A stretch of 40,789 nucleotides of DNA, from NCBI GenBank assembly GCA_024763275.1, contig JANTFT010000019.1, positions 1 to 40,789 of the forward strand, in the 5' to 3' direction. Below are positions 1,354-38,730 of the stretch, in pieces. How positions within the stretch are numbered: position 1 is the first letter of the stretch; each line of letters begins with the position of its first letter. Origin of the DNA: Anaerolineales bacterium (GTDB lineage Bacteria; Chloroflexota; Anaerolineae; Anaerolineales; UBA11858). Both the position numbers and the translations under genes were made by a program. The notes under the pieces are model-generated. The model did no database searches, was not told the origin of the DNA, and worked only from the letters and a program-made list of their open reading frames with translations.

Positions 1354-1815
1354 TTAGCCCGGGCTCAGCTGGGAAGTGCAGTGAGGGCAGCGGGTGGCCC
1401 CCTGGGGGATACTCGAAAGACAGAAGGGGCACTCCTTGGTAGCTGGTTCAGGGGCCTGCTCTTCCCCGGGTTTTCCCTGCTGCAGGCGGTTGACAGCCCG
1501 GATCAGGAGGAACATAGCCAGAGCAATGATCAGGAATGAGATGATGGCGTTGATGAACAGGCCGTAATTGACCGTCACCGCCCCGGCCGCCTGGGCGTCT
1601 GCGAGTGAGAGATAAGGGCCGGCGGGAGAGCCGCTGGCGATGGTGATGTAAAAATTCTCAAAATCCACCCCTCCCAGCAGCCATCCGAGGGGGGGCATGA
1701 GGATGTCCTTGACCAGCGAATTGACGATAGAGCCGAAAGCGGCGCCGATGATGATGCCGACTGCCATGTCCATCACGTTGCCCCGCAGGGCAAAATCCTT
1801 GAACTCCTTTAACAT
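1354..1815 (-). CDS. mscL: Large-conductance mechanosensitive channel with C-terminal zinc ribbon
   Basis: A 153-residue inner-membrane channel that opens on membrane tension to release solutes during hypo-osmotic shock. The N-terminus [28 protein letters not shown] is the amphipathic helix and pore-lining TM1 of Msc[18 protein letters not shown] and a second TM near residues 86-106 follow. The usual cytoplasmic helix is replaced or extended by a ribbon with two CxxC pairs (C129, C132, C143, C146), a probable zinc-binding module. The SD reads AGGAGGA just upstream of the ATG. Four bases separate its stop from lipA. What the zinc ribbon does is unknown. Confidence 0.95.
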
Positions 1816-2046: not shown

Positions 2047-2631
2047 ATGAAGAGAGTTCCAGCGCTGCTGTTGCTTATCGGGTTGGTTTCCGGTGTCCTG
2101 ACCGCCTGCCTGCCGCTCACTCCAGTCGCCAATGGTCAGGTCTCGGAAGCCTATATCCAGACCGCTGTTGCCAGCACCCTGGCTGCGGAGAGGGCCAGGG
2201 AAGCCGGGGGAGCGCTGTCCTTCACCTCCACACCGGAAGGGACCCCCGCTGAGGAAGGCACTCCCGGCGCTGAGGAGGGGGAGGAAACCCCCGAAGCCAG
2301 CGACCCTGAACCGACCCTTGAAAACCCCTGGATGCTGCAGAGCTGGTGTGAGGACCACATGGATGGCTGTGTGAAATACGATCTCTCCAACCGCACGGAT
2401 TCCTGGCTGCAGATCGAGCTCAAGGAATCAGAAACTGGCGTGACGGGTTTTTTCACTGTGCGCAGCAAGACCACCGGCCAGATCACACTGATCCCGGGGT
2501 ACTACCAGGTCAAGTACACCTGGTGGTGCGACGGGGAGGTGGAAACTCTGATAGTGAACAAAGCCATCGGGTCCTGGATCGATGTCTTCAAATGCCCCCA
2601 GGGATTTTATCAGCGCCTGAACAAGCAATAA
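2047..2631 (+). CDS. Lipoprotein of unknown function
   Basis: A 194-residue predicted lipoprotein. The signal peptide MKRVPALLLLIGLVSGVLTAC ends in a lipobox with the lipidated Cys at residue 21. It is followed by EAYIQTAVASTLAAE, a motif shared with two other lipoproteins in this window. A low-complexity Thr/Pro/Glu/Gly linker runs over about residues 55-100. The compact C-terminal domain has two Trp-Cys pairs (MLQSWCEDHMDGC and KYTWWCDGEVE) and reads as beta-rich with possible disulfides. I do not recognise a named family. GGGG upstream of the ATG serves as SD. The next gene, also a lipoprotein, starts about 90 bases downstream. Confidence 0.85.
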   Translation: MKRVPALLLLIGLVSGVLTACLPLTPVANGQVSEAYIQTAVASTLAAERAREAGGALSFTSTPEGTPAEEGTPGAEEGEETPEASDPEPTLENPWMLQSWCEDHMDGCVKYDLSNRTDSWLQIELKESETGVTGFFTVRSKTTGQITLIPGYYQVKYTWWCDGEVETLIVNKAIGSWIDVFKCPQGFYQRLNKQ

Positions 2632-2722
2632 TCCTGGCAGCTGGGTATCCCCATGGGTTGTAGCGGGGATATTTCAGCGACCATCACCCTGTTTTTCAGC
2701 ACCCAATCAAGGAGAGGATCAA

Positions 2723-3256
2723 ATGAAGAAGCTGGCCCTGCTTGTTATCCCTCTTATTTTGCTGGCAGCCTGCAGCTCACCGGCAGCGCCTGAGGCTGCG
2801 GCCCCGGGCAGCACAGGATTGGAGGCCCAGCTGGCGGAAAAAGACGCCACAATCGCTGAGTTGGAGGACCAGGTCGCCGGGCTGACCGAGCAGCTGGATC
2901 TGCTGCAGAGTGATTACAATGCCCTGCTGGCTGGCGATGCGGCTGGTTCCTCAGCGAACGCGTCTCCCTTTATGTGTGAATCCACCCTGGAGAACATGAA
3001 GTACACCAGTCCATCCAGTGCTGTTGATATCCTGGAAGGCTGGTTTGCCCTGCAGCCGGATGTGGCGGAGGTGCAGGGGAAGTACTCCACCCAGTTCTGG
3101 ACTGACGTCAATTCCCGCATCCACACCATCCGCTACATCTCGGCTGAGACGGGCCTGTCGGAGACGGCCACCTTTTTGATCTTCTTCGAGGAAGGCGGCT
3201 GGAAAGAAGGCCTGCTGGACATGACCAACCAGTGCTGGCTGGATTATCCGGACTAA
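2723..3256 (+). CDS. Lipoprotein with coiled-coil stalk
   Basis: A 177-residue predicted lipoprotein. The signal is MKKLALLVIPLILLAAC with the lipidated Cys at residue 17. Residues about 33-68 (LEAQLAEKDATIAELEDQVAGLTEQLDLLQSDYNALL) show clear heptad spacing and should form a coiled-coil stalk or oligomerisation segment. The remainder (FMCESTLENMKYTSPSSAVDILEGWFALQPDVAEV and onward) is a small globular domain with two cysteines and a WxxG core. No named family is recognised. A strong SD, AAGGAGAGG, precedes the ATG. It ends just before the tRNA promoter. Confidence 0.85.
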   Translation: MKKLALLVIPLILLAACSSPAAPEAAAPGSTGLEAQLAEKDATIAELEDQVAGLTEQLDLLQSDYNALLAGDAAGSSANASPFMCESTLENMKYTSPSSAVDILEGWFALQPDVAEVQGKYSTQFWTDVNSRIHTIRYISAETGLSETATFLIFFEEGGWKEGLLDMTNQCWLDYPD

Positions 3257-3704: not shown

Positions 3705-5144
3705 TCAAGGCTCCGGCACATCCAGCGGCTGACTGGTATAAATTCCAAAACTTAAATCTGCAGCCCCACTACTTTCTACTCCGCCACTTTTCCAACTATA
3801 ACCGATAAATGACAGAGTAACTGGTTGATTTTCTGCATCCATCGCACCGGGCCTGTAAAAATCAATTGTCATTCTTGGCATTGATATGGTGCCTGATTCC
3901 TGACGGGTGAAATAGAATTGCTCTATATTACTAAATTCATCGGGTCGCTGACATAGCACTGTTGATTCAATTGAAAATGTGCCGCTGCCTTCCCCCACGA
4001 ACCTGAACATTATACCGGACCCATCAGGAGGTGGTACAGCAGGCAGGTCGCTGAATGTGATCCGGGCATTGCCGGTGGCGTTTTCAAAATCATCTATAGT
4101 GGTACCGCTGTAATCCACCCAGCCGGAAGCGGTCAGCGCATCCCAGTCAATTTCCAGATGCACAGCGCCGGAATTAGTATTAAGACCCATTCCAAAGCAA
4201 TAACCTCTATCAGGTTGGGAAGGATGGGCCCACAGGATAATTCCAAAAAATTTATAGGCATCATCATTGGTGAAATCATAGACCGCAGTACCCGACCCTG
4301 AATCGCCCCCGCTGCTGGAGCCGGAATCTGCCTGAGGAGTCTTTTCGCGGGCTTCTCGAGTCGCATCCATTTCTTCCTGATCCATAAGAGCTGCATCCAG
4401 ACCAAACTCGGCTTCGTTGGTTTCCCAAACATGCGGATCATCGGTCGCTTGCCCATCAGCATAAGCAGCTTCCTGCCTCTGGTTGATCCGCTCAGCCAGC
4501 TTCTCCACTTCTTTCTCAAAAAGGGTGTGAACCCGTCTTTTCAAAAGCTGCCGTGTTACCTGCTTTACCAGATTGGCGTTCAGCGGCGCCCCACTCAGGA
4601 CTGCCTCTTTCAGTACCTTTGGAGCTACTTTCTCGATAGCAAACTCGGCCACCTTGCCAGCTCCCTCCATCGTCTTGCCCAACAACCAGCCAGTTGCCCT
4701 CCCCAGCTTTTTGAAACCATGGCGGATAAAACCGAATAATCCTCCCCTCCCGCGGCTGCGTTTGGCAGTCAATGCCTGGGCTTTTTTCTGTAAAGCCTGT
4801 ACCTTGGCTTCCAATTGATTGATCAGTTTTGCTTCCAGGTCCGGATCGTAGTTGCTGCCGGCTTTCAATTTGGCGATCTGATCGGCATACAGCTGGATCA
4901 GTATATCCAGCTCATTGCCTAAACCTGCCTGCTGTGATAGAGACATCAAATGACCCTTCGGCAGCAGAGCAGATTCCACTTCCCCGCCCAGACGCATCTG
5001 AGCTGAGAACATCAGTAATACCGAGTCGTCATACGGATGGGCGATATTGAATGTCAAAACCGGGTTTGTAGATGGTGCCAGGGCGAGCATCAGGCTGGCT
5101 GCTAATACCGTCAAAAGGATCTTCAACAATGATTTACTGGACAT
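3705..5144 (-). CDS. Exported protein of unknown function with basic amphipathic segment
   Basis: A 479-residue protein. The ATG at 5144 is preferred over the track start because GAGGAG lies six bases upstream and MSSKSLLKILLTVLAASLMLALA then forms a signal peptide. Residues about 80-125 are predicted coiled coil (KLINQLEAKVQALQKKAQALTAK). A strongly basic, glycine-rich amphipathic stretch (GGLFGFIRHGFKKLGRATGW) and further basic helices follow. The middle is acidic and Ser/Gly-rich. The last 170 residues look like a beta-rich domain. The gene overlaps its upstream neighbour by 11 bases, so the two are probably translated together. I do not recognise a family. The amphipathic block could be membrane-active, but that is inference. 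Confidence 0.75.
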   Translation of the reverse strand: MSSKSLLKILLTVLAASLMLALAPSTNPVLTFNIAHPYDDSVLLMFSAQMRLGGEVESALLPKGHLMSLSQQAGLGNELDILIQLYADQIAKLKAGSNYDPDLEAKLINQLEAKVQALQKKAQALTAKRSRGRGGLFGFIRHGFKKLGRATGWLLGKTMEGAGKVAEFAIEKVAPKVLKEAVLSGAPLNANLVKQVTRQLLKRRVHTLFEKEVEKLAERINQRQEAAYADGQATDDPHVWETNEAEFGLDAALMDQEEMDATREAREKTPQADSGSSSGGDSGSGTAVYDFTNDDAYKFFGIILWAHPSQPDRGYCFGMGLNTNSGAVHLEIDWDALTASGWVDYSGTTIDDFENATGNARITFSDLPAVPPPDGSGIMFRFVGEGSGTFSIESTVLCQRPDEFSNIEQFYFTRQESGTISMPRMTIDFYRPGAMDAENQPVTLSFIGYSWKSGGVESSGAADLSFGIYTSQPLDVPEP

Positions 5145-5721
5145 GATCTTGCTCCTCAAAACCAATCGCCTCGACGTACACCAGATCCCCCGCCTGCAAG
5201 CCAAAGGTCAGACCGCTGGCATAGTACAGGTCAGCATCTGGCACCAATTCCTTCTCGACCGGCAGGATGAACCACTCCTCCAGCCCGGCCAGGGAAGCCA
5301 GCTGCTTGCGGTCCATGAATGCGAAAAACTGGTCCGGACTGTAGTGGGTCGGGAGGATCTCCGTCTTGGGGATCTCCGCCCGGCTGAGTTCCACTCCGTT
5401 CTCAAAGACCACCTGACTGCCCTGCGCCGGATAAGCCCACTCCTCATAGCGGATAGTTTCCACACTGCCTTGCAGCCCCTCCCTCTGGTAAAACAGAATA
5501 TAGAAACTCTGCGGCAGACCCCATTCATCCACCAGGTCCTGCTGTTGAACGGAATACGCATACCCATCTGGCACACTTGAGCCGAAATCAAAACCGGTCA
5601 CCATTCGGGGCAGATTCTCGAACTCATTGATCCCCAACAACAGCAAACCCGTGAGACAGATACCGGCCACAAAAAACACAAGAATCCTCTCCAAACTGTC
5701 AGTTCCCTTTTTACCTTTCAA
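5134..5721 (-). CDS. Single-pass membrane-anchored protein of unknown function
   Basis: A 195-residue protein with a TTG start supported by GTGAGGAG just upstream. One N-terminal transmembrane segment (ILVFFVAGICLTGLLLLGI) would leave the remainder outside the cytoplasm. The soluble part (DGYAYSVQQQDLVDEWGLPQSFYILFYQ onward) looks like a small alpha/beta domain and includes the repeated phrase RYEEWAYPAQGSQVVFENG. No named family is recognised. It overlaps the start of the 479-residue gene by 11 bases, and the pair probably forms one functional unit. Confidence 0.75.
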   Translation of the reverse strand: MKGKKGTDSLERILVFFVAGICLTGLLLLGINEFENLPRMVTGFDFGSSVPDGYAYSVQQQDLVDEWGLPQSFYILFYQREGLQGSVETIRYEEWAYPAQGSQVVFENGVELSRAEIPKTEILPTHYSPDQFFAFMDRKQLASLAGLEEWFILPVEKELVPDADLYYASGLTFGLQAGDLVYVEAIGFEEQDHVQ

Positions 5722-6406
5722 TTTCTCCTCACTTTCTTCTCACACCTCTCGTTATAGCCTACATGCCAGGGTGCAACTTTCAAGGTCCAAAAATATTCCC
5801 TGATAATTAAGACATCTGACATATCCAGAGACCAATTTGCAAAGAATTTATTAAAACCTGCAAAAGCTGTTCAAACCTGCCTTGCGATAGACGACTAAAC
5901 CACCATAATAGCTGCTTACAGACTTCTGCCTTTTCCCGAAAAGTACCCGGACATTTTTTGCCATTCAACCAGAAAGCGCAAAAGAAAATACTATGCTGGA
6001 CTTTATTCATTTGAACAACTAGATATAGGAGGATAAGCTAGGACTAATCTCCACCGAGAGAGGTGTCCATTGCTTACCCTGCCTGCTGAATATGATACTT
6101 TTCTTGCTAATATTCAGCAATATTTTTCCAGATGAATCTGGGAATTGGTAGTGACAATATTGATAGGGGGAAAACTTGTTCCAGGGAAGCGTACAGTGAC
6201 ATTAATCTTGAGGATCATGGGATTGAGCAATGAGAACTGGCTCGAGGAAATTCTGGCGCCTTGCGGCTCACGGTTTTTAAGCCAGAACGCTGTTTCCCCC
6301 GCCCGAAAAGTAACAATAAGTGGCTGTTCTGCGTTATTATAATGAAAATGAGTCCTTCCAGTCTCTTGTGTCCTGGATTTCAAGTGCCACCAATGGGGAG
6401 GTCACT
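5722..6406. other. Long AT-richer intergenic region, no convincing gene
   Basis: This gap lies between the divergent 195-residue gene and the 459-residue lipoprotein gene. Track ORFs at 5807-6010, 6114-6383 and 6145-6342 have no SD and no protein-like composition. A terminator-like hairpin sits at 6084-6127, and a TATAAT-like -10 at 6338-6343 could serve the lipoprotein gene, although no -35 is visible. Confidence 0.6.
6084..6127 (+). terminator. Terminator-like hairpin with no obvious gene upstream
   Basis: TGCTGAATA (6084-6092) pairs perfectly with TATTCAGCA (6111-6119) across an 18-base loop, followed by ATATTTTT. The T-run is only on the plus strand, yet no plus-strand gene precedes it. 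Confidence 0.5.
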
Positions 6407-7786
6407 ATGAACAATCATCTTAAACGTTTTTTCTTGCTGGCGATTATGGCGCTGCTGTTCGCCGGCCTGGCCTGCAATCTGTCCGGTCTGACTGAAACTG
6501 TTCAGGATAGCGATCTGCAGGCTTCTGTCGAGGCCGCCTTCGTTAATACGGCCGTTGCCCAGACGCTGGCCAGCGCAGAAGGTGCGAAGCCTGGGGAGGG
6601 GGAGGATTCCCAGCCAGCTTCATCCGGGGAGGCCGCGGCTACCCCGGAACCGGAGCCTACCGCGACGATCGAGCACCAGGCCCGCCCCGGGGAGCCCGGC
6701 CGGGCAAATACCTGGGTGATCGATCAATCGACCAAATCCCAGGCGGCCTCCCGGAGTTCCGGCGCTGACCTGTTCAACACCAATTACCTTGAGAGGCCTT
6801 TCACTTCCCAGGTGATGGATTATCAGGGCTATCTGGACCTTACCCGAGTCAACCTGGAGATCTCCCCTCCTTGGGTGTACGTCACCTATGTGCTGGAAGA
6901 ATCCCCCCCACAGGACTCCAACGCGTCTTATGCCCTGGAAGTTGACCTGGAAAGCGATGGCCGGGGAGATTGGCTGATTCGCGGAAAGGTCCCCACCGGG
7001 ACCGATTGGACTACTGAGGGCGCCCAAGCTTTCCGGGATACCAATGGGGATGTCGGGGGCTTCTCACCCATGAACGCCGAAGCTCCCAACCCCAGCTGGG
7101 ATGGCTATGAGACTCTGGTATTCGAGGATCACTTCGGCAGCGACCCTGATGCAGTCTGGGTCCGACGGGACCCCGGCAACCCGAAACAGGTCCAGTTGGC
7201 CTTCAAGTACAGCTTGATCGGCAGTCCCGGGGCCTTCGCTTTCGGTGGGTGGGCGGATGAAGGGCTGGCTGATCCGGCAGCCTTCGATTACAACGATCAC
7301 ATGACCTTTGATCAGGCTGGCTCCCCCTATTCCGAGAGCAGCAAATACCCGATCAAAGAGCTGGCCTCGGTGGATAACACCTGCCGCTGGACCTATGGTT
7401 ACGAGCCCACCACCAGCTTCCCGGGGGTCTGCCCCCTACCAGCTTCCCCCACACCAACACCGCTGCCGGGTTCGATCTCCGGTGGTGTCTATAATGATGT
7501 GAATGTAAACGGATCCCGCAACGGAGGTGAGCCAGGCATCCCTAATGTCACTGTCAGGCTCGGCCAGGGTGCCTGCGGATCCACTGGCTACGCAAACACG
7601 ACAACAGCCAGCAATGGCAGCTTCCAATTTACTGACCTGCCGGCGGGAACCTACTGTGTCTCCGTGAACATCCCTCTAAGCTGCGGCGGCTGGATACCTA
7701 CAACTGTTACCCAGCGGACAGTCACCCTCGGTGCGGGAGAGGATAAGGTGATCGTCTGGTTTGGATACGCCGTTTATGTTTGCTGA
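6407..7786 (+). CDS. Lipoprotein with C-terminal SdrD-B/Cna-B-like domain
   Basis: A 459-residue predicted lipoprotein. The ATG at 6407 is chosen because GGGGAGG precedes it and the signal MNNHLKRFFLLAIMALLFAGLAC then carries a lipobox (Cys23). The shared motif NTAVAQTLASAE follows at residues 47-58, then a Pro/Glu linker. The middle domain (VMDYQGYLDLTRVNLEISPPWVYVTYVLEE and on) contains Asp-rich stretches such as DTNGDVGG and probably folds as a beta sandwich. The C-terminus (GSISGGVYNDVNVNGSRNGGEPGIPNVTVRL ... GSFQFTDLPAGTYCVSV) is a typical SdrD B-like repeat, a surface-exposed Ig-like module often binding calcium. The function is probably structural or adhesive at the cell surface, and the exact role is unknown. 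A strong terminator follows. Confidence 0.85.
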   Translation: MNNHLKRFFLLAIMALLFAGLACNLSGLTETVQDSDLQASVEAAFVNTAVAQTLASAEGAKPGEGEDSQPASSGEAAATPEPEPTATIEHQARPGEPGRANTWVIDQSTKSQAASRSSGADLFNTNYLERPFTSQVMDYQGYLDLTRVNLEISPPWVYVTYVLEESPPQDSNASYALEVDLESDGRGDWLIRGKVPTGTDWTTEGAQAFRDTNGDVGGFSPMNAEAPNPSWDGYETLVFEDHFGSDPDAVWVRRDPGNPKQVQLAFKYSLIGSPGAFAFGGWADEGLADPAAFDYNDHMTFDQAGSPYSESSKYPIKELASVDNTCRWTYGYEPTTSFPGVCPLPASPTPTPLPGSISGGVYNDVNVNGSRNGGEPGIPNVTVRLGQGACGSTGYANTTTASNGSFQFTDLPAGTYCVSVNIPLSCGGWIPTTVTQRTVTLGAGEDKVIVWFGYAVYVC

Positions 7787-7798
7787 TGAATTAATGCT

Positions 7799-7837
7799 AA
7801 AAACAGGTCCTTTTATGATGAAAAGGGCCTGTTTTTT
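7799..7837 (+). terminator. Rho-independent terminator after the SdrD-B-like lipoprotein
   Basis: AAAAACAGGTCC-TTTT...AAAA-GGGCCTGTTTTTT forms a long stem ending in a T-run, 13 bases after the stop codon. Confidence 0.85.
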
Positions 7838-8060
7838 AGTAAATATGGCTGTGTATTCAAGTCCACTCCTGCAGGGCTCTCCAAAAAATTCCATAACACT
7901 TACCGGCTGCGATCGTGGTTCCTGCTGCCCAATTTCAGCCGGTTGGATTATCATAGAGTGGGGCACAGATCATGAGGGGAGGGTCTAAATGGGTGGAACC
8001 AGCGGGAGCGGCTCTGCTTATCCCCCCCACCGGAAGATTGAAGAAAATGGGAGTGTTTTC

Positions 8061-9425
8061 ATGAAAAGAATTGTCATTGTAATCTCTTTCCTGCTCTTAA
8101 TTCCGGCTTGCAGTTATTTCGAGGGCGGACAAACAGCCAGCCCGGTGCCAGGACAGACCCGCCCTCAACCAGTTGCCTCCCTGACCCAATCTCCGCTGAG
8201 CACCAGTACTCAGGTTGTGGATCAGCTTCTGGCGCCAACCCAGACATCTGCCTCCCTTCCGACACTGGTTCAGAAAGGAGAGGACCAGGTCTGCGGTTCG
8301 GGAGAAAACCGGGTGGTAGTATTGGTGAGCCCTGAGTTCGTTGGGGGAATTCGGGCTGGTTTAGACCAGTTCGAAACAGACTTATGCGCCGAGGGGTATT
8401 CAACCTGGGAACATGCAGAGGATTTTAAATCACCCGTTCAAGTCCGGGAGTGGTTGATTGAAAACTATCTGGAATCAAAAGGTGAGCTGCAGGGGGTTAT
8501 TTTCATTGGCAGTGTTCCTTATGCCTACCAGTCATTTCGGGTTACATACAGCAATCCTGAAATCGCTGATCATGATGAAGAAGTGATCAGCTACCAGTAT
8601 TACAGTGATTTGGACGGCGATTTTAGTACGTCTCCGGATTATGTTTCCCCGGGAGGACATCCTTTTTCGTTTGATATTCACCAGGGGGATGTTGATTGGG
8701 AAATCTGGACAGGTGTCCTGCCGGTTTACCGGGGAGATTCATCTCTGACGATAGATGCCCTGAATCGCTACTTTGAGAAGAACCATGCCTACCGGGTGGG
8801 GGAATATGATCTGCCAAGAGCGTATTTATTCGTTAACGAACATTTCTCAGCGCAAACACAGGAGGAATACCAGCTAGTAATCGAACAGCAGCGATCTGGT
8901 CAATATGCTTGGACGCCCTTCAGTGAGTCAGCCAATGCCTACTTATATTTTGACGCACCGCAAAACGGGATCACGGCAGTTGACGGCTACCAGGCGCTTT
9001 CAGATGGAGTCGCTGATTTCGCTATTCTTTCCGCACATGGTTATTGGGGTGGGCATGGCCAGATAGATCTGTCCTGGTTGAATGACCATCCTCTCAGGAC
9101 TGTATTCTTCTGGAGCAATGGCTGTGCGGTTGGAAACCTGGATTATCCGGGAAATTTCCTGACTGAGGCGCTGTACAGCCCGGGCAGCCTGGTACTGGCA
9201 GCCAAGGGGACCACAAATGATTCCGGAGGAATGGGAACCAACGAGCAGGGTTTTTTCGGACATAATATAGCTGAAGCAATGGCCGGAGGGGCCAGTATCG
9301 GAGACGCGATTTTGGCCCATGTCAATGTACCGCTGATCGAACCCTGGTTGAGCAACCAGGAACTGCATTTTGCACCTTCAATCTTGTTGGGAGATCCAAC
9401 CTTGAAACTAAGAGGTAACAAGTAG
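8061..9425 (+). CDS. Putative C25 (gingipain-like) cysteine peptidase lipoprotein
   Basis: A 454-residue predicted lipoprotein. The ATG at 8061 gives the signal MKRIVIVISFLLLIPAC (Cys17) with GGGAG as SD. A Thr/Pro/Gln linker follows up to about residue 70. The body resembles the caspase-fold peptidase family C25: VVVLVSPEF at the first strand, GVIFIGSVPYAY, then FAILSAHGYWGGHG with candidate catalytic His326 and VFFWSNGCAVG with candidate Cys355. The closing SILLGDPTLKLRG matches the GDPTL signature common in C25 proteins. It would act outside the membrane on unknown proteins. The His-Cys pair and GDPTL motif are visible directly. The family name is recognition by eye, and an inactive relative cannot be ruled out. 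Confidence 0.75.
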   Translation: MKRIVIVISFLLLIPACSYFEGGQTASPVPGQTRPQPVASLTQSPLSTSTQVVDQLLAPTQTSASLPTLVQKGEDQVCGSGENRVVVLVSPEFVGGIRAGLDQFETDLCAEGYSTWEHAEDFKSPVQVREWLIENYLESKGELQGVIFIGSVPYAYQSFRVTYSNPEIADHDEEVISYQYYSDLDGDFSTSPDYVSPGGHPFSFDIHQGDVDWEIWTGVLPVYRGDSSLTIDALNRYFEKNHAYRVGEYDLPRAYLFVNEHFSAQTQEEYQLVIEQQRSGQYAWTPFSESANAYLYFDAPQNGITAVDGYQALSDGVADFAILSAHGYWGGHGQIDLSWLNDHPLRTVFFWSNGCAVGNLDYPGNFLTEALYSPGSLVLAAKGTTNDSGGMGTNEQGFFGHNIAEAMAGGASIGDAILAHVNVPLIEPWLSNQELHFAPSILLGDPTLKLRGNK

Positions 9426-9519
9426 AGTAACCTGCAGTAAATTACCACCCCAACCGATCAGGCCGGGTTGATATTGATGATTTAATGGTGAGCGACAAAA
9501 AAGGGGGAAGCTTTTGGGA

Positions 9520-9547
9520 TTGCATCCGGGATAATTGGTTCTATAAT
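9520..9547 (+). promoter_or_regulatory. Promoter of the 9620 lipoprotein gene
   Basis: TTGCAT (9520-9525) and TATAAT (9542-9547) are separated by 16 bases, with a leader of about 65 bases before the ATG at 9620. Confidence 0.6.
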
Positions 9548-9619
9548 GATTAATGAGCCTTGCTGCGGTTGAGCGGCGAAACATCCCCGGCTGAAGAAAT
9601 TCTGACAAGGAGACTAAAG

Positions 9620-10243
9620 ATGAATGGCAAACGAGCTGTGCTGGGAGCCTTCATCATGCTGAGCGTATTGGTTGCCAGCAGCTGTGCATTATCTGCGAAC
9701 AGACAATCCTCGCCCCCCCAGTTTGTTGAAAAGCCCTCTGAAACCCCAACACCAAATCTCGGGGGGCTGCAGACAACGCCAATGCCCACAATTGTGGATC
9801 TCCAGGGGAGTGTTGATTTTATCTTTGTCTATGCGGTCTATCATCCTGGAGACTTGGATTATTCTGTGACAATCAACATCCCCTTTCATCTTGATGTGAA
9901 TGATCCCCCTTATACCACTATCATTGGTGGAAGCGGTTCCGCCACTGGTTCTGGTGTCGAGGTCTATGAGGGTTGTGACATCAACATCACGGATACATTT
10001 AATATCAAAAACCTGGGAGGCAGTTTGATCACTGATGACCAGGGAAAGCTCCTGCTAGATTTCACCTGGCAAACCAATAATATGGGCGAGTACTATGTAG
10101 TATGTGACGATATAACTCTACCGCTGGGGGGCAGTGAATGGAGTGATAACGAGGTGACGCTGCCAGCGATCGATGGATACGAATATCCGTTAAGCCCGGA
10201 TGCTCCTGTCAGGTACAGGCTGCACCTGAATTCCCTTCCGTAA
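9620..10243 (+). CDS. Lipoprotein of unknown function
   Basis: A 207-residue predicted lipoprotein. The start at 9620 is supported by AAGGAG seven bases upstream and by the signal MNGKRAVLGAFIMLSVLVASSC (Cys22). A short Pro/Thr linker leads to a beta-rich domain (IFVYAVYHPGDLDYSVTINIPFHLDVND, GGSGSATGSGVEVYEGCDINITDTFNI) with an even spread of Asp, Gly and Thr. No family is recognised. It has its own promoter and is followed by the second copy of the dispersed repeat. Confidence 0.82.
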   Translation: MNGKRAVLGAFIMLSVLVASSCALSANRQSSPPQFVEKPSETPTPNLGGLQTTPMPTIVDLQGSVDFIFVYAVYHPGDLDYSVTINIPFHLDVNDPPYTTIIGGSGSATGSGVEVYEGCDINITDTFNIKNLGGSLITDDQGKLLLDFTWQTNNMGEYYVVCDDITLPLGGSEWSDNEVTLPAIDGYEYPLSPDAPVRYRLHLNSLP

Positions 10244-16450: not shown

Positions 16451-16453
16451 TTG

Positions 16454-17524
16454 GTGGTCCAGTATTCAGTACTTATAGCGGATGGAGATCCCGATTATAT
16501 CCAATACCTGGCTGGCACATTAAAGGCCAACGGATTCAAGACTGCTGGCACCTCGTCGGGGGCCAATGCCCTGCAGCTCTATAAAAAAGAAAACCCGGGC
16601 CTGGTGATTGCCGACCTGGATCTAGCGGAAATGAACGGCCTGGACCTGCTCCAAGCCCTGCGGAACTTCAACCCCCGGGTGAAAATAATCCTGACGACTG
16701 ACTCGGCAACCAAGGAGCTGATCACGCGGGCGTTTCGGATGGGTGCCCTGGATGTCCTTGAAAAACCCATTGACATTGAACTTCTGACCAATAAGATCCG
16801 GGAAACCCTGAGCCGGGAGGACCGTGCTCTGGAAGGTGATTTGAGAATGATGAGTCTGTCCAGCATCATCCAGATCAACTGCGATGAGCGCAATCAGGCC
16901 CAGTTGATTCTGAATCATCAGGGTCGGGAAGGGATGATCTTCTTCAAAGAAGGAGAGATGGTCCACGCTGAATTCGGGGGTTTGATAGGTGAAGAGGCGG
17001 TTTACGCCCTGCTGGGTTGGGAAAAGGGCACTTTCCAGCTCAAAATGGGAGCTGAACCCAGAACCCGGACGATCACTAAGCCCTGGTCGGGAGTTTTGTT
17101 GGAAGGCATGCGGCGCATTGATGAATCCACCGCGGGCTGGAGCGCTGATTGGGAGGAAGACAGTGAGCTTTCCCCCGGAGAAGCCCAGGATGATCTGGCT
17201 CCCCGGATCATCAGATCGATCAGGAGCATCCGGGATGTCAGCAGCGCGATGATCTGCGGGAAGGATGGTACAGTACTTGCTCAGGAAAACGGCGCTGGTG
17301 AGAATGATATTCTGGGGCGGGGCATGTTCGTCAAGGAAAAGAGCGAGCTGATCGGCGGGTTTTTAGATGCCGGCGGCTTCGAGCGGGCTGCGCTTTCCGG
17401 TTCGGGAGGGCGAGTCTATTTGCAGCAGCGGGATGATCATTTAATACTATTGACCTTGAGCAATCGCTCATCAGCTGAATCCGTCTTCGAAAATGTGGAG
17501 ATGATCTACAAGCGCTATGAGTAA
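16454..17524 (+). CDS. REC-DUF4388-roadblock fusion response regulator
   Basis: A 356-residue three-part signalling protein. Residues about 1-120 form a receiver domain with phosphoacceptor Asp in LVIADLDLAEMNG, the switch Thr in IILTTD and Lys in LEKPID. The usual Pro after the phosphosite is Ala. Residues about 130-205 form a DUF4388/PatA-N-type domain (LRMMSLSSIIQINCDERNQAQLIL ... GEMVHAEFGG ... ALLGWEKGTFQL). Residues about 245-355 read as a roadblock/LC7 domain (SSAMICGKDGTVLAQENG ... VYLQQRDDHLILLTLSNRSS). AGGAG lies eight bases before the GTG at 16454, while the track's TTG at 16451 leaves five. It is the first gene of the GTPase operon and presumably links phosphorylation input to the GTPase module. 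Confidence 0.85.
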   Translation: MVQYSVLIADGDPDYIQYLAGTLKANGFKTAGTSSGANALQLYKKENPGLVIADLDLAEMNGLDLLQALRNFNPRVKIILTTDSATKELITRAFRMGALDVLEKPIDIELLTNKIRETLSREDRALEGDLRMMSLSSIIQINCDERNQAQLILNHQGREGMIFFKEGEMVHAEFGGLIGEEAVYALLGWEKGTFQLKMGAEPRTRTITKPWSGVLLEGMRRIDESTAGWSADWEEDSELSPGEAQDDLAPRIIRSIRSIRDVSSAMICGKDGTVLAQENGAGENDILGRGMFVKEKSELIGGFLDAGGFERAALSGSGGRVYLQQRDDHLILLTLSNRSSAESVFENVEMIYKRYE

Positions 17525-17545
17525 GCTTAAGTAAGGAAGGGTATT

Positions 17546-18562
17546 ATGATATTTCCTAGACGCGACGCGATCTACCAGAACCTGAATACTTCCTTTACAA
17601 ACTTTGGAGAACTGCTGGTCGACTTAAAAGAGAACAGTTTTACTGGAGTCGTGCAGGTCAGTTTCTGGGAGTACGAGGGCGTACTGCTCCTGGATAATGG
17701 GAACATCATCAATGCTGTTCAGGAGGATAATGGGGTTGTTATTTCCGGGCAGGAAGCCGTTAAATTGGTGATTGACAAGGCCAAAGAGAAAGATGGCTCT
17801 ATCAGTGTATATAACCAGACCGGGGAAATGGTAACCATGCTGGCCAGCGTGACAAAAAGCAAAGCGGTCTACCAGAACTTGAGCACGGAGTTTACCAGCC
17901 TGGAAGCCCTGATCGGCAAGCTGCAGAATGAAGAACACACCGGTTATATAGAAGTCAAATTGGAGGACAGCCACCAGGTCGGATACATCTTCCTGCTGAC
18001 CGGCCGGGTCATTGATGTCCTGCTGACCGCGGCCGGGGGGGAGGTCACCGGGGTCCATGTGCTCAACCGGATCATGGAGAAGATCTCCTCGACGGGCGCT
18101 GTCTTCAATGTCTACGAATCTGCAGTTGAGGAAGCGCTCTCGGACAGCGAGGTCATCAGGATCAGCTACAATCTACCCCGGCTGCTGGAAACCTGGGGCG
18201 TGGTGATCGGTGCTGTGGAATCCGCTGCTGACTCGCTGCTAAAGCCGGGTGATTTTCTGAATACCTTTAAAGATACATTAATTGCCAACGCAGAAGAATA
18301 TCCTTTCCTGGACCCCTTTGCCGCCAAGTTCCACTACCAGGATGGGGAGGTCACTTTCACCGGCGAGGTGAAAAAAGAGTTCAGCCGGGCGATTGCCAAA
18401 TGCCTGTGGGAGACCGTGGAAGTGCTGGCCGAGAATACCGCCCTGGGCGGCAAGGATTTATTCGGCCCTATCCGGACTGCCATCACGGAGGCCGCCGGAG
18501 AACATCAGGAGCTGATTGACCGCTTCAACATTGCTGTTTTGCTGCCGGAGTTATTTACCTGA
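17546..18562 (+). CDS. Tandem DUF4388-like protein
   Basis: A 338-residue cytoplasmic protein. The N-terminal half holds two copies of one unit: IYQNLNTSFTNFGELLVDLKENSFTGVVQVSF...GVLLLDNGNIINAV, and VYQNLSTEFTSLEALIGKLQNEEHTGYIEVKL...GYIFLLTGRVIDVL. Both have the strand pattern of DUF4388 (gene-product repression of growth, small surface protein, then GxV-a/h). Residues about 200-338 are mostly helical and unassigned (LPRLLETWGVVIGAVESAADSLL). SD AAGGAAGG precedes the ATG. It lies 21 bases after the REC gene and 12 before the next roadblock gene. No enzyme motif is present, so an adaptor role is inferred. Confidence 0.78.
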   Translation: MIFPRRDAIYQNLNTSFTNFGELLVDLKENSFTGVVQVSFWEYEGVLLLDNGNIINAVQEDNGVVISGQEAVKLVIDKAKEKDGSISVYNQTGEMVTMLASVTKSKAVYQNLSTEFTSLEALIGKLQNEEHTGYIEVKLEDSHQVGYIFLLTGRVIDVLLTAAGGEVTGVHVLNRIMEKISSTGAVFNVYESAVEEALSDSEVIRISYNLPRLLETWGVVIGAVESAADSLLKPGDFLNTFKDTLIANAEEYPFLDPFAAKFHYQDGEVTFTGEVKKEFSRAIAKCLWETVEVLAENTALGGKDLFGPIRTAITEAAGEHQELIDRFNIAVLLPELFT

Positions 18563-18574
18563 TTCGGGAAAACC

Positions 18575-18952
18575 ATGAAAGCTGGACTGGGAGAGATCAA
18601 CCTAATACCAGGTGTGTGGGGCAGCCTGCTGTGCACTAACCAGGGTGAGCTGATTGAGAATCTCACTCCGCCCGGGCTGAATAAATCTACCCTGGAGAAT
18701 ATTTCCCGGCATATGGTGGAGCTGCTGTCTGGTACTGTTGATTCTATACCGGGATTGGGAGAAGTTGTCCTCCACTACCAGGACAGGAAGGTATTCGCTG
18801 TTGACTTGGAGCGGGCTGTCCTGATAGTGGTCTGCACGCCCAGTGTGGATATCTCCCTGCTGCGGCTGAACATCAATGTGGTGCTGACGCGCTGGGAGGA
18901 CGATCCCGGCGTCCAGAAACGGCTCCGGGAAAGATTTGTAGAGAGGATATAA
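18575..18952 (+). CDS. Roadblock/LC7-family protein
   Basis: A 125-residue small alpha/beta protein. The phrase GVWGSLLCTNQGELIENLTPPGL near the N-terminus, followed by a helix and the strands EVVLHYQDRKVFAVDLERAVLIVVCTPSVDISLLRLNINVVL, fits the roadblock/LC7 fold. Such proteins often bind or regulate Ras-like GTPases, as MglB does for MglA. It is one of three stand-alone roadblock genes in this operon. The SD is weak (CGGGAAAACC), suggesting translational coupling with the gene ending 12 bases upstream. Confidence 0.78.
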   Translation: MKAGLGEINLIPGVWGSLLCTNQGELIENLTPPGLNKSTLENISRHMVELLSGTVDSIPGLGEVVLHYQDRKVFAVDLERAVLIVVCTPSVDISLLRLNINVVLTRWEDDPGVQKRLRERFVERI

Positions 18953-19011
18953 AAGTAAGCTGAGGGAATACTGAGGAACCCAGTACTTATTCATTGAGTC
19001 AGGAGAATAAT

Positions 19012-19803
19012 ATGGTTGAAGTTCTAAAAGGAAATCTTGCCCAACTCTCTCTGCTGGACATCCTGCGCATGCTCAGCTCTTCCGGCCGTAGCGGCCGACT
19101 GGATGTGCGCCAGGGCAGTAAGACCGGAGAGATCTATCTGCGGCGAGGGAACGTGGTCCACGCCGTGACAGGTGTCCAGATGGGCGAGAAAGGCGTGTAC
19201 ACCTTGATGGGCTGGATGGAGGGAGAGTTCAGCTTCACCCCCGACGTGGAGGCTCCCGAGCAGTCCATTGAAACAGCTACTGAACAGCTGATGCTGGAAG
19301 CTTCCCGCCAGGCAGCACAGTGGGGGGACATCAAGGATGTGGTTTCCTCCACTGACGCGATATTCAACATCAGTCCTTCCGGGTCCACCAACACGGTCAG
19401 CTTGAAGCCGATCGAGTGGCAGGTGCTGACCCAGATCAACGGGGAGAAGTCAGTAGCGGATATTGCGGAAGCCCTGGACCTGCAGGAATTTGAAGTGGCC
19501 AAAATCGTCTACAGCCTGACTACCGCGGGTTTGCTGCATGAGGTTTCAGACGTTCAGCGGACATTCAAGGAGATCGTTGAGGAAAGCTTCTTTGAGGTGT
19601 TGGCCGACAATTTCACAGAGGTGATGGGTCCGATTGGACCGGTCATCATCGAGGATGAAATCAAACTGATGGGGGAAGCCCGGGATGCTTTTCCGCAAGC
19701 CAAGGCGGCAGAGCTGGTTGAACGGGTCAGTCTGGAGATCGTAGACAGCCGCAAGCGGGCAGAGTTTCAGAAGAAGATGGTGCTGGTATTAAAGGGGAGT
19801 TAG
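19012..19803 (+). CDS. DUF4388 protein with winged-helix-like middle
   Basis: A 263-residue protein. The ATG at 19012 is chosen over the TTG at 18994 because AGGAG sits six bases before it. The N-terminus VEVLKGNLAQLSLLDILRMLSSSGRSGRLDVRQGSKTGEIYLRRGNVVHAVTG...ALMGWMEGEFSFTP-like pattern is a textbook DUF4388 domain. The middle (IEWQVLTQINGEKSVADIAEALDLQEFEVAKIVYSLTTAGLL) has winged-helix character. The helical C-terminus (VMGPIGPVIIEDEIKLMGEARDAF) recurs with DUF4388 in similar operons. PatA of heterocyst-forming cyanobacteria carries the same N-terminal domain. A role as adaptor or effector of the GTPase is inferred. A small hairpin, TGCCAGT-ACTGGCA, lies at 19817-19836 before the next gene. 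Confidence 0.85.
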   Translation: MVEVLKGNLAQLSLLDILRMLSSSGRSGRLDVRQGSKTGEIYLRRGNVVHAVTGVQMGEKGVYTLMGWMEGEFSFTPDVEAPEQSIETATEQLMLEASRQAAQWGDIKDVVSSTDAIFNISPSGSTNTVSLKPIEWQVLTQINGEKSVADIAEALDLQEFEVAKIVYSLTTAGLLHEVSDVQRTFKEIVEESFFEVLADNFTEVMGPIGPVIIEDEIKLMGEARDAFPQAKAAELVERVSLEIVDSRKRAEFQKKMVLVLKGS

Positions 19804-19859
19804 CGTTCCCTACACTGCCAGTTTAATGGACTGGCATTAAATACTGCAGGAGGCAATCG

Positions 19860-20660
19860 ATGCGACTTACATATATTAGAAGATTAATGGTCATTCAGGC
19901 TGTGATCGTGCTGCTGCTGGTTATTTCAGCGTTTTTCACCGCCACAAATTTGAACCGGTCCCTGGCTCTGACCATTGAGCTCACTAACCTTCAGGAAGGG
20001 GTGCAGGCAACGGGCAATATCGCGGACGCTTTGGAAGAAGAACGCATTGCTATTGGCCAATACCCCCTCACCGGCAGCGAAGATCTGCTTACCAGAATCG
20101 CAGACGCGCAGGCTGTTTACAATGAGAACTGGCAGGTTGTCACCCGGGTTTTCGGGGCCGAACAATCCCAGCTGCTGGCCGACATTGAAACCAGCCGGGC
20201 GACCTATGAAGATTATCTCAACAATATTATTACGGAATATCAATCCAACCCGGAGAACAATGATTCGGCTTCCTTTCTGAGAGACGCCATTAATTATTAT
20301 TTGCAGAATCTGGGTCCCAAGATCGCTGACCTGTCCGAACCCGCTTTTCAGAAATTGGTTTCCCAGGTGGAAACCGAGCGGGCGCGGGCTAAAAGGTTAG
20401 CAATTTTCTCCGGGGTTGCCCTCGCTTTTAGCGTCATCGTGGGTGTTATGGTTGTGGTGCTGGTGGCTGTGGTCCTGCTGTTCAGTGGGAGAATGATCCA
20501 GGCCATCCAGAATATTGTGGACGCCACCAACCAGATCAGCCGCGGTGACATGGATGCCTACATTGATGTGGACCAGGGTGGTGACATCGGAGATCTAGCC
20601 CAGGCTATTGACCGGATGCGCACCAGCCTCCGGGCGGCTATTGAGCGCCTGCGCCGCTGA
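19860..20660 (+). CDS. Membrane receptor with HAMP domain and no output domain
   Basis: A 266-residue two-pass membrane protein. TM1 is residues about 8-28 (LMVIQAVIVLLLVISAFFTA). An extracytoplasmic helical region of about 150 residues (LTNLQEGVQATGNIADALEEERIAIGQYPL) resembles four-helix-bundle sensors of chemoreceptors. TM2 is LAIFSGVALAFSVIVGVMVVVLVAVVLLF. A HAMP domain (IVDATNQISRGDMDAYIDVDQGGDIGDLAQAIDRMRTSLRAAIERL) ends the protein with no kinase, cyclase or methyl-accepting tail. SD GGAGG precedes the ATG. Its place in the GTPase operon suggests it passes a signal directly to a roadblock or DUF4388 partner. Confidence 0.88.
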   Translation: MRLTYIRRLMVIQAVIVLLLVISAFFTATNLNRSLALTIELTNLQEGVQATGNIADALEEERIAIGQYPLTGSEDLLTRIADAQAVYNENWQVVTRVFGAEQSQLLADIETSRATYEDYLNNIITEYQSNPENNDSASFLRDAINYYLQNLGPKIADLSEPAFQKLVSQVETERARAKRLAIFSGVALAFSVIVGVMVVVLVAVVLLFSGRMIQAIQNIVDATNQISRGDMDAYIDVDQGGDIGDLAQAIDRMRTSLRAAIERLRR

Positions 20661-20693
20661 AGATAATCAGAGAAAACCACAGAGGAAACTATC

Positions 20694-21182
20694 ATGAATC
20701 AAGGATTACACATACCTGAGGAGCTGCTGGACCGGATTGATCATATCCTGGCCCACCTGGCTGAAAAAGCCCATACCGACAGCATCGTGCTGGCGGATAT
20801 CAGCGGCCAGGTAATCTCCATTCAGGGCGTGATGGATGAAGGCACTCCCGCGGTGGTAGCTGCTCTGGCTGCCGGGGACGTGGCAGCCATGTCTGAACTC
20901 TCTAACCGCATTGGGGAATCCGATCCCCATGGATCTTTCTTCCACGAAGGCGAAACTAAAAGCATCTACCTGCATAATATTGCGGGAAGTTTCATCTTGA
21001 TCGTCATTTTCCGGTCGGAAACACCTATTGGCCTGGTGCGGCTGTTTGCCAAGAGAGCGGTGGAACAGCTCCTGCCGGTCACCGAAGAATTCGAGGAAAT
21101 CGTCGGCCCTCCTGCTGATTATGCGCCGGATGACTTTCGTAAAGGCATCACCCAGGAATTGGACGATACATTTACCGAGTAA
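20694..21182 (+). CDS. Roadblock/LC7-family protein, probable GTPase regulator
   Basis: A 162-residue protein. The roadblock fold is suggested by IDHILAHLAEKAHTDSIVLADISGQVISIQGVMDEGTPAVVAALAAGDVAAMSELSNRIGESDPHGSFFHEGETKSIYLHNIAGSFILIVIF, the closest of the three to MglB-type proteins. A C-terminal acidic helix (FEEIVGPPADYAPDDFRKGITQELDDTF) follows. It lies directly upstream of the MglA-like GTPase (16 bases), the same arrangement as mglBA in Myxococcus. Whether it acts as a GTPase-activating protein is inferred from that context. SD AGAGGAAA precedes the ATG. Confidence 0.87.
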   Translation: MNQGLHIPEELLDRIDHILAHLAEKAHTDSIVLADISGQVISIQGVMDEGTPAVVAALAAGDVAAMSELSNRIGESDPHGSFFHEGETKSIYLHNIAGSFILIVIFRSETPIGLVRLFAKRAVEQLLPVTEEFEEIVGPPADYAPDDFRKGITQELDDTFTE

Positions 21183-21198
21183 GGATTTTATTTGAAGG

Positions 21199-21798
21199 AT
21201 GTTTATTAATTGGAAGTTGCGAGAGATCAACCTGAAGATCGTATATTATGGTCCTTCCCTGAGCGGAAAAACGTCCTCCCTGCAGTATATCCACCAGCGA
21301 ACGCGCCCGGACCGCCGGGGAGAATTGATCTCGCTTAAGACCCGCGAAGACCGCACCCTGTATTTTGATTATATGCAGTTCGAGATGGGAGAAATCAGCG
21401 GTTTGAAACCTCGCTTTAATATCTATACTGTCCCCGGCCAGGTATATTACCGGGGCACCCGCAAGCTGGTATTGAAAGGTGTGGATGGGATTGTCTTTGT
21501 AGCGGATTCCCAGATCAGACGTCTGAACGAAAACATAGCAGCCATCAATGACCTCTTCGAGGATCTGGAAGAGTTGGGCTTTAAGCCGGATGAAGTGCCG
21601 CTGATCCTGCAGTGCAATAAGCGCGACCTTCCGGAGATCATGCCTGTGCTCGCCTTGAAGGAATCTTTGGGCTTGAACGGTGTTCCTACCTTTGAAAGTG
21701 TGGCGGTGGATGGGGCAGGTGTGCTGGATGGATTGAAGAATATTATCAGCCAGGTAGTGACCAAGGCGCGGGGAAAGATCTATTCCAGTCCTGCCTAG
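21199..21798 (+). CDS. MglA-like small Ras-superfamily GTPase
   Basis: A 199-residue GTPase. The N-terminus MFINWKLREINLKIVYYGPSLSGKTSSLQYIH contains the P-loop (GPSLSGKTS, K24). The G3 region is YTVPGQVYY, with the DxxG Asp replaced as in MglA relatives (TVPGQ). The G4 motif is NKRDLP. There is no lipidation signal. MglA-type GTPases switch on polarity and gliding in Myxococcus and on other signalling outputs elsewhere. Here the neighbours are roadblock and DUF4388 proteins with no motility gene visible. SD is short (GAAGG touching the ATG), suggesting coupling with the upstream roadblock gene. Confidence 0.93.
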   Translation: MFINWKLREINLKIVYYGPSLSGKTSSLQYIHQRTRPDRRGELISLKTREDRTLYFDYMQFEMGEISGLKPRFNIYTVPGQVYYRGTRKLVLKGVDGIVFVADSQIRRLNENIAAINDLFEDLEELGFKPDEVPLILQCNKRDLPEIMPVLALKESLGLNGVPTFESVAVDGAGVLDGLKNIISQVVTKARGKIYSSPA

Positions 21799-26952: not shown

Positions 26953-27034
26953 TTTTTCTCAAAACCGCCGGGAAATCCCCACCAGTACCCCTACTGATAG
27001 GCTAGTAGATTCTAAAATCCCCCACAGGTGGGTA

Positions 27035-27063
27035 TTGATTTCCAAAACGTTTTGGTTTATGAT
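27035..27063 (+). promoter_or_regulatory. Promoter of the lacI-type regulator and sugar operon
   Basis: TTGATT (27035-27040) and TATGAT (27058-27063) are separated by exactly 17 bases, with transcription expected to start near 27070. The spacer consists almost wholly of the first operator palindrome, so bound repressor would exclude RNA polymerase. Confidence 0.8.
27042..27055. promoter_or_regulatory. LacI-family operator O1
   Basis: CCAAAACGTTTTGG is a perfect 14-bp palindrome with the central CG typical of LacI/GalR-family operators. It fills the promoter spacer. Confidence 0.85.
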
Positions 27064-27073
27064 TATAGAGTAC

Positions 27074-27087
27074 CTGAAACGTTTTGG
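27074..27087. promoter_or_regulatory. LacI-family operator O2
   Basis: CTGAAACGTTTTGG matches O1 at 12 of 14 positions. The centres of O1 and O2 are 32 bp apart, about three helical turns, so both face the same side of the DNA. O2 starts a few bases past the predicted transcript start. Confidence 0.8.
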
Positions 27088-27108
27088 ATAAAGACAGCTT
27101 CCCAGTTT

Positions 27109-28143
27109 ATGTCAGCTACATTGAAGGATATTGCCAACCGGGTTGGAAAATCTGTAACCACAGTTTCCAGGGCTTTGAATGACTTTGATGATGTCAGTCC
27201 GGAGACCAAGGCTGAAGTTCAGCGCGTGGCAGATGAGCTGGGCTACATCCCCAATATACTCGCTCAGCGCCTCCAGAAGCAGAGCACAGACACCATCGGG
27301 ATTATCCTTCCTACCTTTGGGCCGCGGTTTTCCGACCCGTTTTTCAGCGAATTCCTGGCCGGGATTGGGAATCAAGCTGCCAAATTAGGATATGATTTGC
27401 TGGTTTCAACCCGACCTCCCGGGAAAATAGAACTTGAAGCTTACCAGCAACAGGTCCGCAGCCCCCGGGTGGATGGTTTTATCATTGTCCGCACCCGCCT
27501 GCAGGATCAGCGCATTACCTTCCTTTCCCGGGCGGATTTCCCTTTTGTAGCTTTTGGCCGCATGCTGGATGATGACCGCTATATTTATGTGGATGAGGAT
27601 GGTGAATACGGCATGAAATTGATCACCGATCATCTGGCGGAGCTCGGGCACCAGCGTATCGGATACCTGGATGGACCGGCTGATTTGATGTTTGCCTATT
27701 ATCGGCGGGAGGGATTCGTGAACGGCCTGGCGGAGCAAGGGCTGAGCGCTGACAGGACTTTATTCGTCAGTGGAGATCTGACCCAGAAAGCAGGCTACAA
27801 GCTTGCGAATGAGCTTCTCAACAGGCCGGATGCCCCCAGCGCGATAGCTGCTTGCAACGATCTGATGGCTCTCGGTGCTATCAGCGCAGCCCAGGATCTG
27901 GGATTGGAAGTGGGAGAGGATGTGGCCATCACGGGATTTGATAATATCCCTCTGGCAGAGCACTGCCATCCCCCGCTGACAACCGTTCATCAGCCTATTT
28001 ATCAAATCGGCGAGATGGTCTGTAAGATGCTGATCAAACAAATCAGAAATGAATCTCTGGAGCAGGAACAAATCATCCTGCGGCCATCTTTGATGGTTCG
28101 CCAGTCAAGCACAGGCAAGAAAGTCCTGAGCGAGAATTCTTGA
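27109..28143 (+). CDS. LacI-family transcriptional regulator
   Basis: A 344-residue repressor. The ATG at 27109 starts the canonical headpiece MSATLKDIANRVGKSVTTVSRALNDFDDVSPETKAEVQRVADELGYIPNILAQRL, which holds the helix-turn-helix and hinge helix. The rest is a periplasmic-binding-protein-like effector domain (IGIILPTFGPRFSDPFFSEFLAGIGNQA; AITGFDNIPLAEHCHPPLTTVHQP). The effector is probably a sugar or glycoside handled by the genes downstream. Two operators lie immediately upstream, so it represses its own promoter and the operon. The SD is poor, consistent with low expression. The track start further upstream would overlap the operators and is rejected. The ABC transporter gene begins 78 bases downstream. 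Confidence 0.95.
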   Translation: MSATLKDIANRVGKSVTTVSRALNDFDDVSPETKAEVQRVADELGYIPNILAQRLQKQSTDTIGIILPTFGPRFSDPFFSEFLAGIGNQAAKLGYDLLVSTRPPGKIELEAYQQQVRSPRVDGFIIVRTRLQDQRITFLSRADFPFVAFGRMLDDDRYIYVDEDGEYGMKLITDHLAELGHQRIGYLDGPADLMFAYYRREGFVNGLAEQGLSADRTLFVSGDLTQKAGYKLANELLNRPDAPSAIAACNDLMALGAISAAQDLGLEVGEDVAITGFDNIPLAEHCHPPLTTVHQPIYQIGEMVCKMLIKQIRNESLEQEQIILRPSLMVRQSSTGKKVLSENS

Positions 28144-28155
28144 AAAGGAGGTGAT
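28143..28155 (+). promoter_or_regulatory. Perfect anti-SD match without a start codon
   Basis: AAAAGGAGGTGAT directly abuts the regulator's TGA and matches the full 16S rRNA anti-SD sequence. No ATG, GTG or TTG is placed to use it. An ATT at 28157 would open a 12-codon peptide. It may be a ribosome stand-by site or a leader-peptide relic. Confidence 0.4.
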
Positions 28156-28221
28156 TATTCTCAGAAATTGGGTAGCCTTTTTGTGTAAAGCATAAACTAT
28201 CACCAAGATGGAGGAAAAGAT

Positions 28222-29532: not shown

Positions 29533-29550
29533 GCTCCCTGTAAACTGAAT

Positions 29551-29580
29551 GGATAGGGCCGGGACCTCCCGGTCCTATCC
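29551..29580 (+). promoter_or_regulatory. Intra-operon hairpin after the binding-protein gene
   Basis: GGATAGGGCCGGGACCTCCCGGTCCTATCC is a 14-bp near-perfect stem followed by TTCCTTTAAA rather than a full T-run. It is placed like the malE-malF type elements that protect or partly terminate mRNA after a binding-protein gene. Confidence 0.7.
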
Positions 29581-29602
29581 TTCCTTTAAAAAAGGAATAC
29601 CA

Positions 29603-31584: not shown

Positions 31585-31593
31585 GAGAAAACA

Positions 31594-32685: not shown

Positions 32686-32734
32686 AGGCTTTTCGAGCGG
32701 CATTGATTGCAGGCGGAAGCTAATTCGAGACCTT

Positions 32735-35818: not shown

Positions 35819-35825
35819 TCCGTAT

Positions 35826-38708: not shown

Positions 38709-38730
38709 ACGGAGTTGGTATACAGAAAAT

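What the first reader, a model, noticed from the sequence alone, without database searches (positions are those of the whole stretch)
3705..5721. Overlapping gene pair: membrane-anchored protein plus exported protein with amphipathic basic block
The two genes overlap by 11 bases, share no recognisable family, and the larger has a coiled coil followed by GLFGFIRHGFKKLGRATGW-type basic amphipathic helices and a beta-rich tail. The mix resembles a membrane-active or toxin-like protein with a partner.
Basis: inference. Interest (0 to 1): 0.5.

Follow-up and report, generated by a model that had tools for sequence, protein, structure and literature searches.

The report
Modular two-gene surface system, Anaerolineales
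Two overlapping genes of unknown family form a conserved, jointly transferred pair in patchily distributed Anaerolineales (Chloroflexota) bacteria: a small membrane-anchored protein and a secreted protein whose front half is constant and whose back half is exchanged between strains, suggesting a surface recognition or antagonism system.

Summary
On the minus strand, A (5721-5134, 195 aa, one TM helix and an acidic ectodomain) overlaps B (5144-3705, 479 aa, signal peptide, helical basic N-half, beta-rich C-half) by 11 bases. Neither matches Pfam, NCBIfam, PHROGs or PDB. Profile searches gave 28 family-A loci, nearly all in Anaerolineales. In 26 of 27 assessable loci a secreted B gene lies next to A (gaps -11 to +58 bp; in one subclass B precedes A). 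A profile of B's N-domain hits 13 of 301 order genomes, all among the 18 with A. The N-domains of 19 class-I Bs form one family, but their C-terminal halves fall into nine unrelated groups. Some groups are shared across N-domain subtypes, and one A can serve up to three tandem Bs with different C-ends. Next to rarA, RarA is 88% identical between genomes while A is 33% identical, so A and B were replaced together. The pair is therefore a horizontally moving modular unit. Most likely A holds the constant half of B at the membrane and B displays an exchangeable beta domain; a secreted toxin with an anchored immunity protein is the main rival. Nothing here shows toxicity or membrane activity.

The parts
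5134..5721 (-). Gene A: 195-aa membrane-anchored protein, TTG start, GAGGAG at about 5725-5730
   Evidence: family profile E 5e-74
5617..5700 (-). A: transmembrane helix, residues 8-35
   Evidence: hydropathy; helix 7-35 in the model
5356..5556 (-). A: ectodomain, first alpha-beta4 module (residues 56-122), holding the invariant G68, P70, E93, W95, Y97, F106, G109
   Evidence: model pLDDT about 90; invariants
5152..5352 (-). A: ectodomain, second alpha-beta4 module (residues 124-190), probably an internal duplicate of the first
   Evidence: model; the halves align in register by hhalign, P 0.001, probability only 21%
3705..5144 (-). Gene B: 479-aa exported protein, ATG start, GAGGAG at about 5152-5157, overlapping A by 11 bases
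5067..5144 (-). B: signal peptide, about residues 1-26
   Evidence: hydropathy peak at residues 4-25; helix 4-22
4425..5066 (-). B: constant helical N-domain (about residues 27-240), shared by all 19 class-I Bs; its first helix (DSVLLMFSAQMRL) is also shared with class III
4590..4757 (-). B: basic Gly-rich segment, residues 130-185, with GLFGFIRHGFKKLGRATGW at 135-153
   Evidence: conserved in nearest homologues
3708..4286 (-). B: variable beta-rich C-terminal module (residues 287-479); the same module type is found only in G867's two tandem Bs

Best explanation
A and B are a two-component envelope module that moves between Anaerolineales genomes as one unit. Shown: the linkage, the constant-N/variable-C architecture of B, the joint replacement at one site, and A's constancy while B's C-ends vary. 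Inferred: A is anchored in the cytoplasmic membrane with its acidic ectodomain outside; B is exported by Sec and docks to A through the constant helical N-domain (perhaps its first helix after the signal peptide), so that the exchangeable beta-rich C-domain is held and displayed at the surface to bind a variable ligand (neighbour cell, substrate or phage). FHA or zinc-ribbon cytoplasmic domains on some A proteins suggest that in those variants A can also report inward.
For: B lies beside A in 26 of 27 assessable A loci, within -11 to +58 bp where measured. The B N-domain profile hits 13 of 301 genomes, all among the 18 A carriers (hypergeometric 4e-19, not corrected for phylogeny). The 19 class-I N-domains form one cluster and the C-halves nine; C-types cross N-subtypes (G006, G007_1 and G762c share one), and G007 has three tandem Bs with three C-types behind one A. 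A and B N-domain distances co-vary (Mantel r 0.62, 0 of 5000 permutations). At the rarA site RarA is 88% but A only 33% identical, and the intruding pair resembles one in another family (48/42%). A carries FHA-TM, zinc-ribbon-TM or lipobox N-ends and lectin-like or TolB-propeller C-ends, as expected of an exoplasmic, membrane-held binder. The A ectodomain is acidic in all members, and class-I and class-II B N-domains are neutral to basic (the unclassed G027 B is -6).
Against: Binding of A to B is not shown. Class-III B N-domains are acidic, so simple charge attraction is not general. Class-II B N-domains show no detectable homology to class I. No C-module scanned has a recognised ligand-binding family, and no fold match reaches significance.
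Confidence: 0.42

Rival explanations
1. B is a secreted antagonistic protein: the constant helical, basic, Gly-rich half damages membranes, the variable beta half selects the target cell, and A is a membrane-anchored immunity protein that neutralises the constant half.
For: Linked pair replaced as a unit; tandem Bs behind one A would fit immunity against a shared killing half; patchy distribution; basic Gly-rich helices.
Against: Amphipathicity within chance; no toxin or pore family; FHA, zinc-ribbon, lectin-like and propeller fusions to A are unusual for immunity proteins; no orphan A genes that would protect non-producers were clearly seen.
Confidence: 0.25
2. A is an export, folding or assembly factor for B (a dedicated membrane-bound chaperone), and B acts alone once released.
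For: Overlapping or abutting genes; one A for several Bs sharing one N-domain; weak, non-significant Foldseek neighbours of A include LolA/LolB and T7SS chaperones.
Against: In class III B precedes A at most loci; extra extracellular binding domains on A are not needed by a chaperone; fold matches not significant.
Confidence: 0.15
3. A signalling pair: B is an extracellular ligand-binding subunit and A a transmembrane co-receptor that signals inward.
For: FHA-TM and zinc-ribbon-TM versions of A; variable C-domains.
Against: The window's A has only about 7 cytoplasmic residues, and many A proteins are lipoproteins with no inward domain.
Confidence: 0.1
4. Ordinary envelope housekeeping proteins of unknown family, paired only by inheritance.
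For: Purifying selection; conserved site beside rarA in several genomes of the genus.
Against: Not found in most genomes of the family (15 of 21) and order (283 of 301); joint replacement at one site; C-module shuffling.
Confidence: 0.05

Closest known systems
Polymorphic toxin systems (Zhang et al. 2012, PMC3482391)
   Same: Exported protein with constant N-part and recombining C-terminal module; tandem paralogues; small adjacent partner gene
   Different: No recognised toxin domain; partner A is constant while C-modules change, so it cannot be matched to the C-module; A is membrane-anchored with extracellular fusions
BamE (SmpA/OmlA) and BLIP-type alpha-beta folds (from memory)
   Same: Motif layout of each half of A (helix, G.P, W.Y, F..G.L); tandem duplication as in BLIP
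   Different: No match to PF04355 among the members, no BamE in these genomes, and neither BamE nor BLIP among the 50 listed Foldseek matches
Two-gene anchor/display pairs, such as lipoprotein plus surface-exposed partner (general kind, from memory)
   Same: Adjacent genes for a membrane-held protein and an exported partner
   Different: New sequence families; exchangeable C-module; found only in Anaerolineae in this sampling
Zorya ZorA (PADLOC)
   Same: Weak coiled-coil match to B residues 106-234 (E 4e-4)
   Different: Score 17 bits over a helical stretch only; B has no TM region there and no other zor gene was noticed nearby

Membership tests
Polymorphic toxin system | Constant N-region with interchangeable C-terminal modules | tested here: met
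   One N cluster, nine C clusters, C-types crossing N-subtypes
Polymorphic toxin system | C-module is a recognisable toxin domain | tested here: not met
   No toxin domain in the B proteins scanned (Pfam; NCBIfam and PADLOC for the window's B only)
Polymorphic toxin system | Each C-module has its own cognate immunity gene | tested here: not met
   One A for three Bs with three different C-types in G007
Polymorphic toxin system | Toxicity neutralised by the partner | not testable with these tools
   Needs an expression assay
BamE/SmpA-OmlA family (PF04355) | Sequence match to the family | tested here: not met
   PF04355 not among matches of 24 A members; no PF04355 match in the own genome or 20 relatives while control genomes ring
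BamE/BLIP-like fold | Helix plus beta-sheet fold similar to solved members | tested here: inconclusive
   Model has two helix-plus-four-strand modules, but no Foldseek match at E<=0.001 and neither family in the 50 listed rows
New A-B pair family (defined here) | Family-A ectodomain adjacent to a secreted B gene | tested here: met
   26 of 27 assessable loci; window gap -11
New A-B pair family (defined here) | Physical interaction of A and B | not testable with these tools
   No complex prediction or assay available

The most novel reading that the evidence does not exclude
A previously undescribed, horizontally exchanged polymorphic recognition system of Anaerolineales: a constant membrane-held receptor plus secreted proteins with a constant docking half and a shuffled recognition half, used to tell neighbours (or phages) apart, with alleles replaced as whole pairs at a fixed chromosomal site.
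Probability: 0.25. Interest if true: 0.7.

Novelty: new variant of a known kind. Interest (0 to 1): 0.5.

Why it matters
Anaerolineales are abundant, mostly uncultured bacteria, and little is known of their surface conflict or recognition systems (general knowledge). A compact two-gene module with shuffled C-ends and joint replacement at one site is a concrete candidate, and the constant partner makes a clear, testable prediction: A binds B's N-domain.

Tried and rejected
(1) Named family: none in Pfam, NCBIfam, PHROGs or PDB sequences. Band_3_cyto, NNH1, ZorA (PADLOC) and EspB matches are weak, helical or coiled-coil, and taken as chance. (2) BLIP/BamE membership of A: suggested by motif layout, not supported by Pfam or the listed Foldseek rows. 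(3) Phage or plasmid cargo: no relatives in phages, plasmids or IMG/VR. (4) tRNA-site island: the pair lies about 200 bp beyond tRNA-Met and G005 has a different gene there, but no attachment-type repeat was found. (5) Amphipathic helix as evidence of membrane activity: moment not above shuffles. (6) Charge complementarity as a general docking rule: fails for class III. (7) Structure of B: model too poor (pLDDT 60) for fold inference; the NspA-like match has E 0.03. (9) Extra family-level A searches around G762 and G867 added no new carriers. (10) Two literature searches found no description of the pair.

Full report
What is there. The window is contig C19 of a 2.55-Mb draft genome. Named relatives of the pair's carriers are Chloroflexota/Anaerolineales metagenome assemblies. 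On the minus strand, A (5721-5134, TTG start) and B (5144-3705, ATG start) overlap by 11 bases, each with GAGGAG upstream. A has one TM helix and an acidic ectodomain (-17 to -18). Its AlphaFold model (pLDDT 80) shows helix-strand-strand-strand-strand twice, and the halves align in register, weakly (P 0.001). B has a signal peptide, a helical N-half and a beta-rich C-half; the model is poor (pLDDT 60). Neither is in Pfam, NCBIfam, PHROGs or PDB, and no Foldseek match is significant.

Pairing. A searches gave hits in 6 of 21 family genomes, 18 of 301 order genomes from 12 genera, 3 of 396 in a class draw and 1 of 400 in a phylum draw. The last two draws include the window's own genome. Reading the loci, 26 of 27 assessable A genes have a secreted B gene immediately adjacent; G810 is the exception (its A reading frame is broken) and G762:C162 ends near a contig edge and was not counted. 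Measured gaps run from -11 to +58 bp. At four class-III loci (lipoprotein-type A) B precedes A; at G867 the class-III B follows. Reciprocally, a profile of the class-I B N-domain hits 13 of the same 301 genomes, all A carriers. The probability by chance is 4e-19, uncorrected for shared ancestry. The one B without a visible A (G762:C3:52) starts at a contig end.

Modularity. The N-domains of 19 class-I Bs form one similarity cluster, while their C-halves fall into nine clusters or singletons with no convincing profile similarity between them. C-types are shared across distant N-subtypes: G006, G007_1 and G762c share one, and G792a shares one with the G000c10 group. G007 has three tandem Bs with three C-types behind one A. 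The window's C-type recurs only in G867's two tandem Bs. Class I and class III Bs share only the first 60 or so residues, the signal peptide and the helix after it (hhalign probability 93%, E 4e-7 for a single comparison). Class II has no detectable homology to either. A 'LTPEE' beta domain is shared between the C-ends of some A proteins and class-III Bs (E to 2e-14).

Joint replacement. In five genomes of the genus a pair lies beside rarA. RarA is 87-89% identical between G006 and each of G005, G002 and the own C10 copy, but the G006 A is only 33-37% identical to theirs. Instead it is 58% identical to the window's A and 48% to that of G867 in another family, and B's N-domain follows (44% and 42% against 16-18%). 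So A and B were exchanged together at one site. Between the own C10 pair and G002, dS is 0.28-0.30 for the pair against 0.84 for rarA, which suggests a more recent shared origin of the pair than of its neighbour. The own genome thus holds two pairs: one at rarA (C10) and the window's beyond tRNA-Met. In G005, at the site equivalent to the window's, a different gene stands beyond the tRNAs.

Architecture of A. Family A occurs with FHA plus TM, zinc ribbon plus TM, TM alone or a lipobox at the N-end, and with lectin-like (3keto-disac_hyd/Laminin_G_3), TolB-propeller or 'LTPEE' domains at the C-end. This places the A domain outside the membrane (inference from these neighbours).

How it probably works. 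Because A stays constant while B's C-modules change, and one A serves several Bs, A must (if it binds B) recognise B's constant half. The simplest reading is anchoring and display of an exchangeable recognition domain. The strongest rival, an immunity protein against a killing N-half, makes the same binding prediction, so only a toxicity test separates them.

Limits. Genomes are fragmented drafts, so absences are soft. The N/C boundary was set at fixed residues. A-B binding, localisation and function are untested. The BLIP/BamE resemblance of A is recalled from motif layout and was not confirmed.

Noticed in passing
window 1354-1815 (-): MscL channel with a C-terminal zinc-ribbon-like tail (CPFC...CPHC); MscL E 1e-42, zinc-ribbon matches only weak.
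   Followed up: partly
window 2047-3256 and 6410-10243 (+): Run of lipoprotein or secreted genes around the pair, including an SdrD-B-like domain protein and a protein with a near-threshold match to peptidase family C25 (7989-9425).
   Followed up: partly
window 16451-21798 (+): Response-regulator, PATAN-like, roadblock-like and MglA-like GTPase genes in a row, resembling a polarity or motility module; read by eye only.
   Followed up: no
window 27028-40488 (+): Apparent sugar-uptake cluster: LacI-type regulator, ABC transporter, large alpha-mannosidase-like protein, glycosidase-like gene, glycosyltransferase and sucrose-phosphorylase-like gene; read by eye only.
   Followed up: no
L017 3926-5921 (G000:C10): Second A-B pair of the same genome, beside rarA.
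   Followed up: yes
L065 4682-6388, L068 699-1790, L063 5175-5990: Family-A proteins with a cytoplasmic FHA-type domain before the TM helix, hinting at inward signalling in these variants.
   Followed up: partly
L066 3365-10632 (G940): B-A pair followed by HlyD-like, ABC ATPase and permease genes of MacAB type; not noticed at the other loci read.
   Followed up: no
L053 4593-11572 (G867): Array A-B-B-A'-B'' combining class I and class III pairs in one run.
   Followed up: partly
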